Shown here: positions 719 to 8,714 of the stretch, piece after piece
Layout: every line of letters begins with the position of its first letter
Numbering within the stretch: the stretch's first letter is position 1
Assembly: GCA_021789355.1 (NCBI GenBank)
Contig: JAJYJR010000231.1
Coordinates: 1-8,714, forward strand
Direction: 5' to 3'
DNA: 8,714 bases
From: Chloroflexota bacterium
GTDB lineage: Bacteria; Chloroflexota; Limnocylindria; Limnocylindrales; CSP1-4
Notes under the pieces: generated by a model
Database searches by the model: none
What the model was told of the DNA's origin: nothing
The model's input: only the letters and a program-made list of their open reading frames with translations
Position numbers and translations under genes: made by a program

Positions 719-746
719 TTGACCGCCGGCATGGCCCGACCAGGGT
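719..746 (+). promoter_or_regulatory. Candidate sigma70-type promoter for the HTH gene
   Basis: TTGACC at 719-724 is followed after 16 nt by CAGGGT at 741-746. The same arrangement (TTGACG, 16 nt, CAGGAT) occurs before the gene at 3202, which makes both more credible. The -10 is a weak match, so this is inference from pattern only. Confidence 0.35.
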
Positions 747-1023: not shown

Positions 1024-1032
1024 GGCGGGAGC

Positions 1033-1084
1033 GACTCCAACCCAACCCCGCCTCCCCTATGCCGCCTGGGCTTGGGTTGGAGTC
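1033..1084. repeat. 13-bp perfect inverted repeat between convergent genes
   Basis: GACTCCAACCCAA (1033-1045) is exactly complementary to TTGGGTTGGAGTC (1072-1084), with 26 nt between. The right arm lies inside the last codons of the minus-strand ATPase (its ...VTPTQAQ end), and the left arm is 9 nt after the stop of the HTH gene. The position suits a bidirectional terminator, but there is no T-run and the loop is long. A recombinase or replication-protein binding site is the alternative. Confidence 0.6.
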
Positions 1085-2097
1085 ACCGCGGCCGCCGGCC
1101 GGTAGAGCGGGCGGTTCACGGGGCCGGCCTTGACCAGGTAGCCATCGCGCACGAAGGCCGCCAGCGCCTGGCGGGCGGTCTCGTCGCTGACGCCACGAGC
1201 TGCGGCAAGGTCGGGAGCGGCGAGCCCGCTCGCGGGGTCCGCCGCCACGCGCGCCGCGGCCAGCGCGACCACGGTCTCCGGGTCGACCCCGCCCGGATAC
1301 CGTGGCGTCGCCGGTGCCGACGTGGCCTGGGCCCGAACCGTGAAGCTGGCGGTCGCGCCGTCGTAGTCGAGGCGCAGCGACTCGCTCTCGGCATCGCGCA
1401 TCTCGCTCTCCAGGCGCAGGTGGTCGCCCTTGCGGGCGAGGATGAGGTTCCCGTCGGTCGCCGAGATGATCGCGCCCGAGCCGCGCGCCACGTTGCCGAT
1501 GGTGCCACCCTCGGCCGCGTGCTTGACCACGTGATGGACGAGGAGGACAGCGGTCCCGGCGGCGGTCAATCCCTGGAGGGCCGCCATGACGCGGCTCATC
1601 TCGCCGGCGACGTTCTCATCGGCGCGGTGCAGCTTCACCAACGGATCGAGGACGACCAGCACGGGCCGCAGCCGGGCGATCTCCTCGCGCAGGGCGCGCC
1701 AGCGCTTCGCCTCGTCGGTGCGGATCCCGGCCCGCAGCACGAGATGGGCGTAGGCCGGGGTCCCGCGCCGGGCCACGATGCGCCGGTAGCGCTCGGCCAC
1801 GCCGGCAGGTGTGCCCTCCTCGAGCACGTACAGGGTCGGGCCTGCGAGGACCGGGCGATCGAGGACGGGCTGCCCGGCCGCGACGGCCACCGTCAGGTCC
1901 ATGGCGAAGGTCGTCTTGCCGAGCTTCTGGGGACCGGCAAGGACGATGAGTCCACCGGCCGGGATGAGGCCGGGGACGACCCAGCGCAACGGCACAATCT
2001 CCTGTGCCAGGAACGCCGCAATGGACTGGGACAAGGGCGGCGGGGGGTCAGATGGTGATGCGTGGGATCGAGATGCGGGTTCGGCGGCGGATGGCAC
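1057..2097 (-). CDS. RepA/AAA_25-type RecA-fold ATPase with C-terminal winged helix
   Basis: The protein has 346 residues. It has a Pro-rich N-terminus (about 1-25), Walker A GPQKLGKT at 55-62, VLEE at 91-94 as likely catalytic glutamate, Walker B LVVLDPL at 147-153, VHH at 187-189 and RGSGAI at 205-210. This order is that of the AAA_25/RepA family (RSF1010 RepA-like hexameric ATPases), common on plasmids, phages and integrated elements. Residues about 270-333 look like a winged helix (DETARQALAAFVRDGYLVKAG), a fitting DNA-binding end. The likely role is helicase or loader in replication of an element; no primase or origin is seen nearby. The start is GTG at 2097, with AGGAGA 5 nt upstream. 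It is the last gene of a minus-strand group, 132 nt after the membrane-protein gene. Confidence 0.85.
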   Translation of the reverse strand: MPSAAEPASRSHASPSDPPPPLSQSIAAFLAQEIVPLRWVVPGLIPAGGLIVLAGPQKLGKTTFAMDLTVAVAAGQPVLDRPVLAGPTLYVLEEGTPAGVAERYRRIVARRGTPAYAHLVLRAGIRTDEAKRWRALREEIARLRPVLVVLDPLVKLHRADENVAGEMSRVMAALQGLTAAGTAVLLVHHVVKHAAEGGTIGNVARGSGAIISATDGNLILARKGDHLRLESEMRDAESESLRLDYDGATASFTVRAQATSAPATPRYPGGVDPETVVALAAARVAADPASGLAAPDLAAARGVSDETARQALAAFVRDGYLVKAGPVNRPLYRPAAAVTPTQAQAA

Positions 2098-2144
2098 GAC
2101 GGTCTCCTGGTGGCAGCGGCGGAGCTGGACCGGGGGACCGTCTG

Positions 2145-2169
2145 CGAGAGCACCCTCTCGTCAAGAGGG
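2145..2169 (-). other. Mutually exclusive hairpins upstream of the ATPase gene
   Basis: Three short arms compete: CGAGAG (2145-2150), CTCTCG (2155-2160) and AGAGGG (2164-2169). The middle segment can pair with either neighbour (CGAGAG/CTCTCG, or CCCTCT at 2153-2158 with AGAGGG), not both. The site is in the 132-nt gap before the ATPase start on the transcribed strand. It could act as an attenuator or an operator; this is pattern only. Confidence 0.3.
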
Positions 2170-3005: not shown

Positions 3006-3087
3006 GCAGCGGTCCTTCCGGAGCGACCGCCGATCGCGCCGGGTGCGGATCGTCGCGGCTCCGGGAGGTTCGGCGACCGAGGCCGCA

Positions 3088-3155
3088 CGTCAAGCGGACG
3101 GGGGGTCTCATGCGCCGACCGCCCAGCTTGACGGCGCCGTGCAGCGGCCCAGGAT
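3088..3155. promoter_or_regulatory. Divergent promoter/operator with TTGAC-containing inverted repeat
   Basis: CGTCAAGC (3088-3095) and GCTTGACG (3126-3133) are exact inverted copies with 30 nt between. Each arm contains TTGACG reading outward, as expected for two divergent -35 boxes. Rightward, CAGGAT at 3150-3155 sits 16 nt after its TTGACG as a candidate -10 for the gene at 3202. Leftward no good -10 is seen. A shared regulator of both transcription units is inferred. Confidence 0.4.
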
Positions 3156-3201
3156 CGGGCTGGTGCCGTGACCGGGTCCGGTCGCGGGGAGCGAGGGGAC
3201 C

Positions 3202-3939
3202 ATGGCCGCCCGAGATCGCGTGCGCGAACACCCCGGCGACGCGGGTCCCCTGCGCCGCCCGCTCGTGCGCGGCCTGCGGGAGCGCTGGGGACGCGAGCGG
3301 GTCCGCCTGGCGGTGTGGCGCGGCACGTTCCTGCTCGTGCTCGGCGGCCTCGTCCTCGCGAGCGTGCTCGACCAGCCCTATCACGCGGCGATAAGCGCCT
3401 GGGTCGTCGCCGGGTCAGTCGCCTGGATCAGTGGCGTGGTCGCCGAGCGCGATCGGGCCCGCCGGATCCGCCGGCACGACACCAGCGGCCTGCCGGCGAT
3501 CGGCGGCTGGCGTCTGGTCGCCCCTCCGGGCGAGCTCGCGCCCGAGGACCTGCTGGCGCTCGACCTCGTCGCCTGGCTCTACGACCGCGCGCAGCTGCGG
3601 CAGCGACCCATCCGCGGGCATTCCCGGGGCGGTACCCGGACCACCTACGCCGGCGGGGGCCTGCGGGCCCTGGCCCGTCGCTGGGCCGCGCAGAGCGGGG
3701 CCCCGGTGCGCCAGGGCGATCGCACCCTGGCCCGCCTGCGCGCCCTTGGAGTGGTCCGCGGGGTGCGCATCAGCCAGGTGGTCGCCCATCGCCTCGTCTT
3801 CACCAGCGCCGAGGACGCCATCCGGACCATGGAACTCGCGACGGGTCGGCGGCTGGTGGCCTGGGAACTCGGGCGTGATCCGCGCGCTGGTGATGCGGAC
3901 GAGGCCGCGCCATGGTCAGGCGAACCCGCGCGCGCGTAG
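3202..3939 (+). CDS. Membrane-anchored protein with possible winged-helix domain
   Basis: The protein has 245 residues. A strongly basic N-terminus (about 1-38) precedes two hydrophobic segments at about 40-56 and 62-81, then a charged RDRARRIRRHD turn. The soluble C-terminal part has helices around 112-131 (ELAPEDLLALDLVAWLYDRA) and 153-200 (LRALARRWAAQ...RTLARLRALGVVRGVRI), whose order resembles a winged helix. The family is not recognised. GAGGGG shortly before the ATG at 3202 supports the start. It is divergent from the zinc-ribbon operon and shares its control region. The stop (TAG, 3937-3939) lies inside a dispersed repeat found again at 5382, so the C-terminus may have been re-formed by recombination. 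A membrane-tethered DNA-binding role is inference only. Confidence 0.72.
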   Translation: MAARDRVREHPGDAGPLRRPLVRGLRERWGRERVRLAVWRGTFLLVLGGLVLASVLDQPYHAAISAWVVAGSVAWISGVVAERDRARRIRRHDTSGLPAIGGWRLVAPPGELAPEDLLALDLVAWLYDRAQLRQRPIRGHSRGGTRTTYAGGGLRALARRWAAQSGAPVRQGDRTLARLRALGVVRGVRISQVVAHRLVFTSAEDAIRTMELATGRRLVAWELGRDPRAGDADEAAPWSGEPARA

Positions 3940-4003
3940 GAATGCTCCGGCACAGGGTCGACGCCGCTGCAGGGCCAACGCGCGACCCGATCCGTCGCGC
4001 TCG
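3924..4003 (+). repeat. Dispersed repeat, copy A
   Basis: This stretch starts at the last codons of the 3202 gene and resembles 5382-5460. The core, CGCGCGTAGG-A/G-ATG-C/G-TCCGGCAC, is followed by a weaker shared tail (GCGCGA..C..TC..GTCGCG). Both copies end a plus-strand reading frame with the same TAG. On the minus strand both read PVPxHxYARAGS, so the repeat may derive from a lost coding sequence. Confidence 0.5.
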
Positions 4004-4023
4004 AGACCAATGACCGACGTTCC

Positions 4024-4138
4024 CACGGCACGACGAACTGGGGGTTGACACGAGCCCAGTGCCGCCGACGCTCGGGCGTCGGACAGATCGCCTCCGCCGG
4101 GGGCGCACCGGCCGCCAGGAAGTGCGGAGAGAGCGGCT
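4024..4138 (+). promoter_or_regulatory. Conserved promoter and 94-nt leader, module copy 1
   Basis: TTGACA (4045-4050) is a consensus -35. From its first T to the ATG is 94 nt, exactly as in copy 2 (6483 to 6577). About 59 of the first 71 positions match with no gap, by my count. Inside lies a perfect hairpin, CCGACGC (4065-4071) / GCGTCGG (4076-4082) with loop TCGG; GCTCGGGCGTCGG is identical in both copies. No convincing -10 box is seen, so part of the conservation may serve an operator or RNA structure. GGAGAGAG before the ATG is the likely ribosome-binding site. Confidence 0.65.
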
Positions 4139-4396
4139 ATGCCAGCGAAGCCACGGTCCATGTACCTCGATCCCTACCTGGCCGACAGCGTTCATCGCGC
4201 GGCGCAGGGTCGCCGGCCGCTGACGCCCAGCACCTACCTGTCCTACCAGCTGCACGGCTGGGCACGCGACCACGCGTACGTGTACCGCCGCGCGCTCATG
4301 CGCGCGCTCGACGAGGAGGTCCGCCAGGGCCGAGTCGTGATCGTCCGGTCGGCGCACAGCGCCGAGGGCTACCTGCCGGTGGAGGTCGCCGCGTGA
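4139..4396 (+). CDS. Basic 85-residue protein, duplicated module, copy 1
   Basis: The family is not recognised. The N-terminus (residues 3-33) is basic with PRSMYL and GRRPLTP, followed by a helical core (STYLSYQLHG... to RALDEEVRQGR, about 31-65) and a likely beta hairpin VVIVRSAHSAEGYLPVEV. Helices followed by a hairpin suggest a small winged-helix DNA-binding protein, possibly a regulator of its own conserved leader. The paralogue at 6577 has the same length and about 58 of 85 identical residues. The block YRRALMRALDEEVRQGR is unchanged in protein although codons differ at synonymous sites, a sign of selection on the protein. The stop overlaps the GTG of the next gene (GTGA), implying translational coupling. 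Confidence 0.82.
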   Translation: MPAKPRSMYLDPYLADSVHRAAQGRRPLTPSTYLSYQLHGWARDHAYVYRRALMRALDEEVRQGRVVIVRSAHSAEGYLPVEVAA

Positions 4397-4725
4397 TCGC
4401 GGGCCCCCGCCCACCCGTCTACGGGGTTTCGCCGGCCGTCTCGACGAATTGCACCCCCAGGCCCGAGATCGAGGATCCTCGCCGCGTCGCGCTCGATCAG
4501 GCGGGCAATGATCCACGCGCACGCGCCTTGATCCGAGACCTGGATGACTGTCTCGATCTGTGGGACATCTCGGAGGGCATCGCCGCCGATGATCCCGCCG
4601 AGATGATCCGTGCGGCGGGAAGCCCTGCTCGGGCCGCAACTGCATGGGGTCTTTCAGCGAGAACGGCGCAGCGGTTCCGAGCGTCGATTGGCGGCTGTGC
4701 ACGTGAAGCAGGGAGTCGCGGATGA
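4393..4725 (+). CDS. 110-residue unknown protein coupled to the small basic protein
   Basis: The start is GTG at 4393, inside the stop of the preceding gene (GTGA overlap), with an open frame to TGA 4723-4725. The middle is acidic and helical (about residues 37-75: DPRARALIRDLDDCLDLWDISEGIAADDPAEMIRAAG). The end (about 77-100: ARAATAWGLSARTAQRFRASIGG) reads as a helix-turn-helix with the A-x-x-x-G-L-S-x-R-T pattern. No family is recognised. An acidic protein coupled to a small basic one is a layout seen in toxin-antitoxin and repressor pairs, but nothing here proves that. The equivalent frame after copy 2 (ATG 6834) is short and degraded. The start could only be GTG, since no upstream ATG lies in frame after the previous gene's start. 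Confidence 0.6.
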   Translation: MIAGPRPPVYGVSPAVSTNCTPRPEIEDPRRVALDQAGNDPRARALIRDLDDCLDLWDISEGIAADDPAEMIRAAGSPARAATAWGLSARTAQRFRASIGGCAREAGSRG

Positions 4726-4803
4726 GGGATCTCCTGGCCGATCTCGCCCACGGGAACGGGGAATCGGTCAGGGAGGTTCTCCCGGGGCGACGGCGGTGCC
4801 ACG

Positions 4804-5203
4804 ATGCACGTGACAGGGGGTCTCGTGATCGCAATCGGGCTGGCCCTGGCGAGTTCCCTGGCCTGCGGGAGCGCCGACTTTGCGGGCGGCCTGGCGTCCC
4901 GCCGCGCACATGTGTTGCGTGTCGTGACGGCCGGGGCTCCCGCCGGTCTCGGGCTGTATCTCCTGCTGCTCCCTCTGGTCGGCGCGGCCTGGTCGCGCTC
5001 TGCGCTCGCCTGGGGCGCGGGGTACGGCCTGGCCTCGGCGGTCACCTTCGCGCTGCTCTACGAGACCCTGGCCCTCGGCCCCATGAGCGTCCTCGCGCCG
5101 CTCACCGCGGTGATTTCAGCGGTCGTCCCGGTCGGAGTGGGTCTCCTGGAGGGCGGGCGCCTTGCCAGCCCGGCGATCCTCGGACTGCTTGTGGTGATCT
5201 TCG
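4804..5203 (+). pseudogene. Truncated EamA/DMT-family transporter (N-terminal half)
   Basis: The reading frame encodes about 133 residues typical of the first EamA repeat: hydrophobic helices from about 8-24 (LVIAIGLALASSLACGSADFAGG, the usual G-S-A-D-F segment), 40-60, 67-87 and 96-115, and the conserved end LEGGRL.SPAILGLLVVI. Intact members have two such repeats and about 280-300 residues. Here similarity stops near 5203 and the frame continues as unrelated sequence to a TAG at 5397. The true start may be ATG 4804 or GTG 4825; AGGGGG lies 4 nt before the GTG. With only half the fold it is unlikely to transport. The loss of the second half at a sharp point suggests recombination, not gradual decay. 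Confidence 0.7.
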
Positions 5204-5207
5204 AGGG

Positions 5208-5366
5208 TGATCTGGCTCCGGCGCGAGCGACGGAGCCGGCGGCGCCGACCGCTCGCCGCTGCCCACGGGTGACGAGCTTGAACCCCACGATGAGCGCCGC
5301 CATTGCCCACATGACCGGCAGCGAGAGCGAGGCGTGGAGCACCACCGCAGCCCCGACGACCGCCGA
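5208..5366 (-). pseudogene. Possible antisense fragment of a membrane protein (DUF2182-like end)
   Basis: Read on the minus strand, this stretch gives CVRGSAVVGAAVVL, then LSLPVMWAMAALIVGFKLV, then TRGQRRAVGAAGSVARAGA. It loosely resembles the last helix of DUF2182 predicted metal-binding membrane proteins (VMxxxWMAALAxxxxAEKLLP). It begins where the plus-strand EamA similarity ends, so two opposite-facing gene ends appear joined near 5205. The frame has no credible start. The family match is from memory of the motif and is weak. Confidence 0.3.
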
Positions 5367-5381
5367 GCCGCGCACGCACGA

Positions 5382-5460
5382 TCCCGCACGCGCGTAGGGA
5401 TGGTCCGGCACGGGTGGCAGCGAGGCACGACGAGCGCGCGATCGGTCCTCGTCGCGACCG
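5382..5460 (+). repeat. Dispersed repeat, copy B
   Basis: This is the partner of 3924-4003. The best part is 5383-5412, where most positions agree; the tail aligns only with small gaps. As in copy A, it supplies the terminal PARA codons and TAG stop to the plus-strand frame entering it. The two copies bracket module copy 1 and the EamA fragment, a 1.46-kb interval. Confidence 0.45.
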
Positions 5461-5486
5461 TGGTTCACCCTTCCCGCCATTCAGCC

Positions 5487-5562
5487 GTTGTCTGTCGAAT
5501 AGCTGGTACCTTCGTAACTGCCCCGCCGGAAGTAGTACTACTTCCAACCCAGCTAGGACAAC
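5487..5562. repeat. Nested palindromic structure around a perfect 18-bp palindrome
   Basis: The centre is GGAAGTAGTACTACTTCC (5528-5545), a perfect palindrome. Around it, TAGCTGG (5500-5506) pairs with CCAGCTA (5549-5555), and outside that GTTGTC (5487-5492) pairs with GACAAC (5557-5562). The left side has unpaired stretches of 7 and 21 nt; the right has 1 and 3. The region is visibly less GC-rich than its surroundings. It could be an operator for a dimeric regulator, a recombination or replication site, or the stem of an RNA. It lies 94 nt before the start of the next gene. Confidence 0.7.
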
Positions 5563-5656
5563 TGCGCCCCTCGCACCGCACCGCGCTGTCTGCGAAGGTC
5601 CGACTTGACCAGCCGCCGATGTCGGGCGGCCCTCAACGCAGCAGCGGAGCACACCA

Positions 5657-6130
5657 ATGACCGACCGCACGGCCGTAAACGGGGACCTGGCCGACGACCT
5701 GGAGACGGTGACGTTCATACCGGGCGACCTCTCCAGGCCACTCGGGATCCGCATGACGGACTTGGACCAATCTCCCGGCGACGTCGCGCGCCGCGACCTC
5801 GCACGCTACTACCGGCTCCTCGACCTTGAGCTCGCACGCTTCGCCTTGAAGTCCGCAGACATCCTGACGCTGGTCATCAGCCTGCAGCCTCCTGTGCTAG
5901 GCACGCGCGCGGACGAGTTCGTGTGGGGGCTCAGAGACGATGCCATCGACCTGGACGATCTGGCGCGGAGCTTGGGCAAAGCAGGAGCGCCGCTGGTGAA
6001 ACGACTCCGGCGACTTCCCACGGCCCGCATGCTGGCCCTCCTGGACGCGATCGAGCGCGTGGAGCCGAGCGCCGGGTTCATCGGCGCCTGGAGGGCATCG
6101 TTGCGGCGCGTCGGGCTGATCCGCGACTGA
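5657..6130 (+). CDS. 157-residue predicted helical protein, unknown function
   Basis: GGAG lies about 7 nt before the ATG at 5657, and the frame runs to TGA at 6128-6130. The N-terminal 40 residues are polar and acidic. From about residue 44 the protein is predicted helical: RRDLARYYRLLDLELARFALKSADILTLVISL, then FVWGLRDDAIDLDDLARSL, then LVKRLRRLPTARMLALLDAIERV. The regular leucine spacing suggests a soluble helical bundle; no catalytic motif, cysteine pair or membrane helix stands out. I do not recognise the family with confidence. It is the only intact gene between the two module copies, and its upstream region holds the nested palindrome, TTGACC at 5605 and a GCCGCC/GGCGGC hairpin at 5612-5630. 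Confidence 0.7.
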   Translation: MTDRTAVNGDLADDLETVTFIPGDLSRPLGIRMTDLDQSPGDVARRDLARYYRLLDLELARFALKSADILTLVISLQPPVLGTRADEFVWGLRDDAIDLDDLARSLGKAGAPLVKRLRRLPTARMLALLDAIERVEPSAGFIGAWRASLRRVGLIRD

Positions 6131-6181
6131 CCTCAATGGGGAAGGTGGGCCCGGGACGCTTCTCGACGAATCGCCACGGCC

Positions 6182-6400
6182 CGCACCGATAATGACCCGG
6201 CGCTCACCGGCCCCAGGCTGGTGCCCTACGACGCGGAAGCGCACGACTCCTTCGTGGCTCTCGACGACGACGGGTCCGTGGGTACCTCGTGCGGGTCTCA
6301 GAGGGCGGCATCACGGCGAACATCCTGCGCGACCACCCTCCGAGCGACAAGGAGATCCGGGTCGCACTCCCCCTCCTCGAACGCGGCACGACTCCTCCAC
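6182..6400 (+). pseudogene. Frameshifted remnant of an unknown gene
   Basis: Two frames read as one protein if a single shift is allowed near 6280: frame 2 gives DPALTGPRLVPYDAEAHDSFVALDDDGSV, and frame 1 continues YLVRVSEGGITANILRDH, then PPSDKEIRVALPLLERG. Both halves look like genuine protein, with balanced acidic, basic and hydrophobic residues unlike the Arg/Pro-rich shadows elsewhere. No good start precedes it (the first option is GTG 6221) and the second half dissolves after about 6400. The family is not recognised. Confidence 0.5.
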
Positions 6401-6462
6401 GGCGGTACGCGTGTGGCCATGCGTGCGCCCGCGCGTCCAGTGGCGGAGGTCGATCCCATGCT

Positions 6463-6576
6463 CACGGCTCGACGGACAGGGGTTGACACGAGCCCGATGT
6501 CGACGGTGCTCGGGCGTCGGCCTGATCGCCTCCACCGGGGGTGTACGGGCCGCGAGGGAACCCCGAGGGAACCCTA
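6463..6576 (+). promoter_or_regulatory. Conserved promoter and 94-nt leader, module copy 2
   Basis: TTGACA (6483-6488) starts a leader aligned without gaps to 4045-4138. Upstream similarity reaches back to CACGGC-A/T-CGACG at 6463, with one G fewer before TTGACA. The conserved 13-mer GCTCGGGCGTCGG is at 6508-6520. The copy 1 hairpin is altered; a weaker pairing CGACG/CGTCG or CCGATG/CGTCGG remains. AGGGAA before the ATG is the likely ribosome-binding site. Confidence 0.62.
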
Positions 6577-6834
6577 ATGCCGCGGAGACCACGCTCGATG
6601 TACCTCGAGAGCTACCTGAACGACGGGGCACAGCGCGCCGCGGTGGGTCGGCGCCCCCTGACCCCCGCCACATACCTCTCCCAACAACTGCACGGTTCGG
6701 CGCGCACCCACGAGTATCTGTACCGGCGCGCGCTCATGCGCGCGCTCGACGAGGAAGTCAGGCAGGGGCGGGCCGTGGCCGTCCGTTCGGCGCGCGGGGC
6801 CGTGGCCTTCGCGTCCACGGCGGCTGCCGCCTGA
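6577..6834 (+). CDS. Basic 85-residue protein, duplicated module, copy 2
   Basis: This paralogue of the protein at 4139 has the same length and about two thirds identical residues by hand alignment. PRSMYL, YL, GRRPLTP, TYLS, QLHG and YRRALMRALDEEVRQGR are kept. The last 15 residues differ: copy 1 has GYLPVEV where copy 2 has an Ala-rich AFASTAAAA end, so the proposed beta hairpin may be damaged or altered. The codon differences in the central block are synonymous. The stop TGA shares its A with an ATG (TGATG), as in copy 1's coupled arrangement. It converges on the restriction gene 112 nt later. Confidence 0.8.
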   Translation: MPRRPRSMYLESYLNDGAQRAAVGRRPLTPATYLSQQLHGSARTHEYLYRRALMRALDEEVRQGRAVAVRSARGAVAFASTAAAA

Positions 6835-6930
6835 TGCGCCAGCGGCGGCGCCCAACCGGGGAGCACGACCTGCCCACCGCGAGCCCTAGGCCCGATCCTG
6901 GGACGGCGGGTGCAACGCGCGTGGCGGTGC
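6834..6930 (+). pseudogene. Likely remnant of the module's second gene, copy 2
   Basis: ATG 6834 overlaps the preceding stop, mirroring the GTG at 4393. The frame encodes MRQRRRPTGEHDLPTAS, with a short shared stretch near PRPD (compare PRPEIEDP in copy 1; CC-C/T-AGGCCCGA at DNA level). It then runs into the end of the convergent restriction gene and stops at 7001. The helix-turn-helix end of copy 1 is absent. The homology is weak. Confidence 0.3.
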
Positions 6931-6945
6931 AGGGGCTCCGCGCGC
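6917..6945 (+). terminator. Weak GC-rich hairpin between convergent genes
   Basis: GCGCGTGG (6917-6924) can pair with CCGCGCGC (6938-6945) with one G-U pair and a 13-nt loop, just before the stop of the restriction gene. There is no T-run. It is a possible terminator for copy 2; low support. Confidence 0.2.

Positions 6946-8714
<1,769 letters not shown>

What the first reader, a model, noticed from the sequence alone, without database searches (positions are those of the whole stretch)
4024..6834. Duplicated small-protein module with a gap-free 94-nt conserved leader
Two paralogous 85-residue proteins (4139-4396, 6577-6834) share not only their coding sequence but the whole leader from TTGACA to ATG, exactly 94 nt in both. 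About 59 of the first 71 leader positions match, and GCTCGGGCGTCGG is identical. Conservation of a non-coding leader at fixed length beside mainly synonymous changes in the core suggests a regulated unit, perhaps autoregulated by the protein it encodes. I know of no named family for it.
Basis: partly seen in the sequence, partly recalled or inferred. Interest (0 to 1): 0.7.

Follow-up and report, generated by a model that had tools for sequence, protein, structure and literature searches.

The report
Duplicated DNA-binding gene with its promoter
Two old copies of a gene for a small, unnamed, probably DNA-binding protein lie 2.4 kb apart, and the shared stretch in front of them is most simply an ordinary promoter plus a short untranslated leader, copied together with the gene.

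Summary
In detail: two 85-residue genes (4139-4396, 6577-6834) share a gap-free 94-nt leader, 70/94 identical, 59 of the first 71. The reading changes. TTGAC lies 52-94 nt upstream of 7 of 8 gene starts tested (shuffle mean 0.35, maximum 3), and 5 of those 7 have A-N3-T at one fixed distance (5 matches in the window, 0.08 expected). So TTGACA is most likely a -35 box and the leader a promoter plus about 60 nt of 5' UTR. The duplicated segment is larger, from 3921 to 4370, and not recent: dS 0.53, and copy 1's nearest relative is P0002, not copy 2. An RNA element is not supported. The protein is probably a small basic winged helix without a Pfam, NCBIfam or PHROGs name; two distant relatives lie in viral contigs, one in a replication-gene region. 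Autoregulation is possible but unshown: the shared dyad is at chance level, and no DNA of close relatives could be reached. Ordinary in kind, useful as a small new family and a promoter pattern.

The parts
4139..4396 (+). copy 1, 85-aa small basic protein (pI 9.8), predicted winged helix
6577..6834 (+). copy 2, 85-aa paralogue (pI 11.3), 68% identical to copy 1
4045..4072 (+). predicted promoter of copy 1: -35 TTGACA 4045-4050, 16-nt spacer, -10 GACGCT 4067-4072
6483..6510 (+). predicted promoter of copy 2: -35 TTGACA 6483-6488, 16-nt spacer, weaker -10 GGTGCT 6505-6510 (lacks the A)
4073..4138 (+). rest of leader 1: start region and about 60 nt of 5' UTR (inferred)
   Evidence: inferred from the promoter pattern; no codon rhythm in the differences
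6511..6576 (+). rest of leader 2: start region and about 60 nt of 5' UTR (inferred)
   Evidence: inferred; in-frame stop in this copy
4045..4057 (+). first identical 13-nt block of leader 1 (matches 6483-6495)
4070..4082 (+). second identical 13-nt block of leader 1 (matches 6508-6520); CGAGC 4051-4055 and GCTCG 4070-4074 form the only perfect dyad with arms of 5 or more kept in both leaders (spacers 3-25 tested)
3921..3999 (+). upstream part of the duplicated segment: last codons of the 245-aa gene and the spacer after it; similar to 5379-5456
   Evidence: 75%, E 1e-7; gapped score 56 v maximum 27 in 200 shuffles
5379..5456 (+). second copy of that upstream part
5457..6462 (+). about 1 kb present only in the second copy; holds the 157-aa gene 5657-6130 with its own TTGAC
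719..746 (+). same promoter pattern, upstream of the weakly excisionase-like HTH gene 811-1023
2137..2164 (-). same promoter pattern, upstream of the AAA_25 ATPase gene 2097-1057
3066..3093 (-). same promoter pattern, upstream of gene 3005-2604
3128..3155 (+). same promoter pattern, upstream of the 245-aa gene 3202-3939
5605..5633 (+). TTGAC 52 nt upstream of gene 5657-6130; no NANNNT at 16 nt (at 17 nt GGCCCT, without the A)

Best explanation
The finding is an old segmental duplication of one transcription unit in what looks like a mobile-element region. Each unit has a housekeeping-type promoter (-35 TTGACA, 16-nt spacer, -10 of type NANNNT in copy 1, degenerate in copy 2), about 60 nt of untranslated leader, and a gene for a small basic winged-helix protein. 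The leader looks special because it is a promoter plus UTR copied with the gene; the same promoter pattern stands before other genes of the window. SHOWN: the duplication, its age, the statistical promoter pattern. PREDICTED: the fold. INFERRED: that the protein binds DNA, most likely as a regulator or accessory factor in phage- or plasmid-like replication or early gene control, and that copy 2, whose -10 lacks the key A, is the weaker or more strongly regulated unit.
Confidence: 0.66

Rival explanations
1. Autoregulatory operator: the encoded winged helix, as a dimer, binds the two identical 13-nt blocks around the -35/-10 spacer (half-sites CGAGC / GCTCG, 19 bp apart) and represses its own and its paralogue's promoter.
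For: Blocks 26 of 26 identical, the 12 nt between them 6 of 12 (Fisher p 0.0003, blocks chosen after seeing them); two identity runs of 13 or more in 2.9% of shuffles; the blocks occur nowhere else in the window with up to 1 mismatch; predicted DNA-binding fold.
Against: The shared dyad is at chance level (18% of shuffles); half-site-like CNCGAGCNC occurs 17 times in the window (9.2 expected), mostly elsewhere; near-matches to the blocks are at the chance count; no third leader to test.
Confidence: 0.22
2. Structured RNA leader (riboswitch, attenuator or protein-binding RNA).
For: Copy 2 folds better than shuffles (z -2.19), and the two-row consensus has 3 of 24 pairs changed on both sides.
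Against: Copy 1 folds no better than shuffles (z +0.62) and its best structure differs; leaders shortened to the last 73 nt plus ATG give z -0.14 and -1.31; no Rfam match; two sequences cannot establish covariation.
Confidence: 0.05
3. Gene-independent repeated leader, like the start-associated sequences of cluster K mycobacteriophages, that sits before several unrelated genes and recruits a common factor.
For: The viral relative in L005 has an exact 24-nt repeat before the family gene and before the next ATG; cluster K phages have repeats before many genes (PMC3203893, passages).
Against: In the window the two leader blocks occur only before the paralogues, and the homology covers gene and upstream DNA too; what the other genes share is only the promoter boxes.
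Confidence: 0.05
4. The upstream stretch is coding: an N-terminal extension or a small upstream ORF.
For: In copy 1 the frame of the gene is open from just after TTGA to ATG; copy 2 has an in-frame GTG at 6541.
Against: In-frame stop in copy 2 within the leader; mismatches spread evenly over the three positions (9, 8, 7).
Confidence: 0.02

Closest known systems
Housekeeping promoters of GC-rich bacteria (Streptomyces avermitilis: -10 TANNNT, -35 BTGACN; PMC8780764, passages read)
   Same: TTGACN box, short fixed spacer, A and T of the -10 at the right places in 5 of 7 sites
   Different: first -10 base is C or G in those five; start sites not mapped; host unknown
Winged-helix DNA-binding proteins (rows include CymR, IscR, RsrR, LmrR, PerR and eukaryotic FOX proteins; that these are winged helices is recalled)
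   Same: helices followed by a two-stranded wing; small and basic
   Different: no sequence match in the PDB (best E 0.98); not shown to belong to any of these families
Start-associated sequences (SAS/ESAS) of cluster K mycobacteriophages (PMC3203893, passages read)
   Same: a repeated sequence upstream of start codons
   Different: SAS is a 13-base repeat (GGGATAGGAGCCC) at genes of many phamilies; here a promoter-to-gene unit is duplicated as a whole

Membership tests
Sigma-70-type promoter of GC-rich bacteria | -35 and -10 boxes at fixed spacing upstream of genes | tested here: met
   5 of 7 sites at 16 nt, 0 of 20,000 shuffles; 5 in the window v 0.08 expected. Copy 1 matches; copy 2 has the -35 but not NANNNT
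Sigma-70-type promoter of GC-rich bacteria | transcription starts 6-8 nt after the -10 (recalled) | not testable with these tools
   needs 5'-end mapping
E. coli-consensus sigma-70 promoter | at least 9 of 12 bases of TTGACA/TATAAT at 16-18 nt | tested here: not met
   0 sites in the window
Winged-helix DNA-binding protein | helix-turn-helix followed by a beta wing | tested here: inconclusive
Winged-helix DNA-binding protein | binds DNA | not testable with these tools
   basic (pI 9.8 and 11.3); binding not shown
A named Pfam / NCBIfam / PHROGs family | clear match of the protein or of many members | tested here: not met
   Copy 1: only XFP at 11.4 bits, cut-off 22; no NCBIfam (E up to 1) or PHROGs (E up to 0.1) hit. 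Of 41 members: Pfam and PHROGs families hit 1 or 2 members each; one NCBIfam model (PRK10441) hits 5, best E 0.014. The terminase hits fit the odd C-terminus of P0038
Rfam RNA family | gathering score reached | tested here: not met
   0 matches in the window
SAS/ESAS-like repeated leader | repeat present before several unrelated genes | tested here: not met
   leader blocks only at the two paralogues in this window; the rest of the genome is not held

The most novel reading that the evidence does not exclude
The two paralogues form a cross-regulating pair of phage-derived winged-helix repressors, each binding a bipartite site around the -35/-10 spacer that was duplicated together with the gene; copy 2's weaker -10 makes the pair asymmetric, a simple two-repressor switch from a family that has no name yet.
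Probability: 0.12. Interest if true: 0.5.

Novelty: new member of a known kind. Interest (0 to 1): 0.3.

Why it matters
It turns a puzzling 'conserved leader' into a testable promoter and gives a promoter pattern for an unidentified GC-rich host. It also brings out a small protein family without a Pfam, NCBIfam or PHROGs name (42 database hits, two of them the window's own), with members in viral contigs, once in the replication region, and short enough to express and test for DNA binding.

Tried and rejected
RNA element: folding, two-row consensus and Rfam, not supported. Coding extension: rejected. Operator dyad: at chance level. Further leader copies in the window: none with up to 1 mismatch; leader pattern in viral contigs: 0.

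DNA of close homologues: genome contigs with copy 1 found nothing; with alignment A2 one match, L001, covering 22 residues, in a Porphyromonadaceae MAG; a whole-genome search there found nothing at E 0.001, so I treat it as chance. tblastn of copy 1 in plasmids and phages: none. P0037 in phages: none; in plasmids: one weak hit, E 0.05, in Novosphingobium, where the frame reads like the end of a sugar kinase (by eye, motif recalled) and the family profile found nothing. Viral scans: A2, P0015, the AAA_25 protein, the leader pattern, A8 and P0040 gave none; P0041 and A9 gave L003 and L005. So no leader of a close relative was ever seen. Relatives of G001: 0 of 21 genomes, uninformative.

tRNA: none in the window. 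Foldseek viral library: no E <= 0.001. PDB sequences: 3 matches with E 0.98 to 2, taken as chance. Papers: listings with starts of abstracts; passages only of PMC3203893 and PMC8780764. I noticed no paper on this protein family in those listings; the searches were by topic words, as the family has no name. Rows left out of the tree: P0036, P0038, P0042 (odd length or fusion), P0006 (fragment), P0001 and P0005 (the window's own); the L003 protein was added, the L005 protein was not.
Full report
WHAT IS THERE. The window (8714 nt, about 72% G+C by the base counts; no whole genome held) holds two 85-codon genes at 4139-4396 and 6577-6834. Their leaders, from TTGACA to ATG, are both 94 nt and align without a gap: 70 of 94 identical, 59 of the first 71. 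The proteins are 68% identical.

HOW FAR THE DUPLICATION REACHES. BLASTN between 3200-4396 and 4397-6900 gives 4024-4370 v 6463-6808 (77%, E 1e-71) and 3921-3999 v 5379-5456 (75%, E 1e-7); the other matches have E 0.009 or worse. A gapped alignment of the second region scores 56 against a maximum of 27 in 200 shuffles. So a segment from the last codons of the 245-aa gene through the leader and most of the small gene was duplicated, and about 1 kb (5457-6462), with the 157-aa gene, stands in the second copy only. The leader is therefore not the only conserved non-coding part.

AGE AND CONSTRAINT. dS 0.53, dN 0.25; 24 of 41 four-fold sites identical. In a tree of 39 proteins copy 1 groups with P0002 (98/95), while copy 2, P0003 and the other lines of this clade are unresolved. 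The two copies thus parted before copy 1 and P0002 did, or copy 2 came in separately. The first 71 nt of the leader are more alike than four-fold sites (p = 0.007), the whole leader only weakly (p = 0.07). Leader mismatches show no codon rhythm (9, 8, 7), and copy 2 has an in-frame stop in its leader, so the leader is non-coding.

THE LEADER IS MOST LIKELY A PROMOTER PLUS 5' UTR. All 13 TTGAC sites of the window, both strands, were listed. Seven lie between genes, on the strand of the next gene, 52-94 nt before its start; six lie inside genes. Of 8 gene starts tested, 7 have TTGAC in the 110 nt upstream; shuffles give 0.35 on average and 3 at most in 2000. I drew up the list of starts; gene 2604(-), which overlaps its upstream neighbour, the doubtful EamA-like ORF 4804-5397 and the type I restriction gene, whose start is outside the window, were not in it. 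At exactly 16 nt after the hexamer, 5 of 7 have NANNNT; over spacings 10-26 the only other is one site at 13 nt. The six TTGAC sites inside genes do not have it at 16 nt (listing). None of 20,000 shuffles did as well at any spacing of 15-19, also when either duplicate was left out. The joint pattern occurs 5 times in the window with 0.08 expected; all five are upstream of genes. I saw the pattern by eye before testing it. Streptomyces avermitilis has -10 TANNNT and -35 BTGACN (PMC8780764, passages). Against it: the first base of these -10 boxes is C or G, copy 2 has G in place of the key A, gene 5657 has no match, and a plain E. coli consensus scan finds nothing.

NO RNA ELEMENT, NO PROVEN OPERATOR. 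Copy 1 folds no better than shuffles (z +0.62), copy 2 better (z -2.19; 6 of 200 shuffles as good), with different structures; a two-row consensus with 3 of 24 pairs changed on both sides cannot establish covariation; no Rfam match. The only perfect dyad with arms of 5 or more kept in both leaders, CGAGC-N14-GCTCG, is matched by 18% of column shuffles. Two identity runs of 13 or more appear in 2.9% of shuffles, suggestive but looked for after the fact.

WHERE THE FAMILY OCCURS. One relative (L003, 73 aa) sits in an IMG/VR contig between a primase/helicase gene (5257-7296) and a DNA helicase gene (8238-10169), with one possible ORF (7414-7938) before it; RecT-like, exonuclease, resolvase, terminase and head-tail adaptor matches lie in the same 16 kb. 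Another (L005, 46% identical to the L003 protein) is near the end of an IMG/VR contig with a terminase-like gene (that gene judged by eye). P0038 equals P0015 over its first 37 residues or so and then reads as a terminase small subunit; it may be a deletion or an assembly fault. The window itself holds an AAA_25 ATPase with matches to phage primase/helicase families, a weakly excisionase-like HTH protein (E 0.005) and a type I restriction subunit. This fits a mobile-element region, which is inferred. The upstream stretches shown for L003 and L005 have no TTGAC leader like the window's (by eye); these are distant relatives, so this says little about close ones.

MECHANISM. Most likely each unit is transcribed from its TTGACA promoter, with about 60 nt of UTR, and makes a small DNA-binding protein. 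Shown: duplication, age, promoter statistics. Predicted: fold. Inferred: DNA binding, role, relative promoter strength. Autoregulation is a fair hypothesis at about one in five.

Noticed in passing
window 5528-5545: Perfect 18-bp palindrome GGAAGTAGTACTACTTCC inside weaker inverted repeats (5484-5565), near the left edge of the 1-kb stretch found only in the second copy.
   Followed up: partly
window 1024-1093: Inverted repeat, 26-nt arms 81% complementary, overlapping the space between the converging genes 811-1023 and 2097-1057; perhaps a two-way terminator.
   Followed up: no
window 4804-5397: ORF with a very weak EamA match (E 0.88), perhaps a truncated transporter gene.
   Followed up: no
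L005:7969-7992 and 8289-8312: Exact 24-nt repeat with a GCCCC-ATC-GGGGC hairpin, 8 nt before the family gene's ATG and again shortly before the next ATG; a further 48-nt repeat (83%) lies at 7928 and 8221.
   Followed up: partly
protein P0038: N-terminal part of this family followed by a terminase small subunit tail; 3 contigs.
   Followed up: no
window 2137-2164 and 3066-3093 (-): Short inverted repeats around the -35 box (CCCTCT-TGACG-AGAGGG; CCGC-TTGACGT-GCGG), read by eye; possible operators.
   Followed up: no
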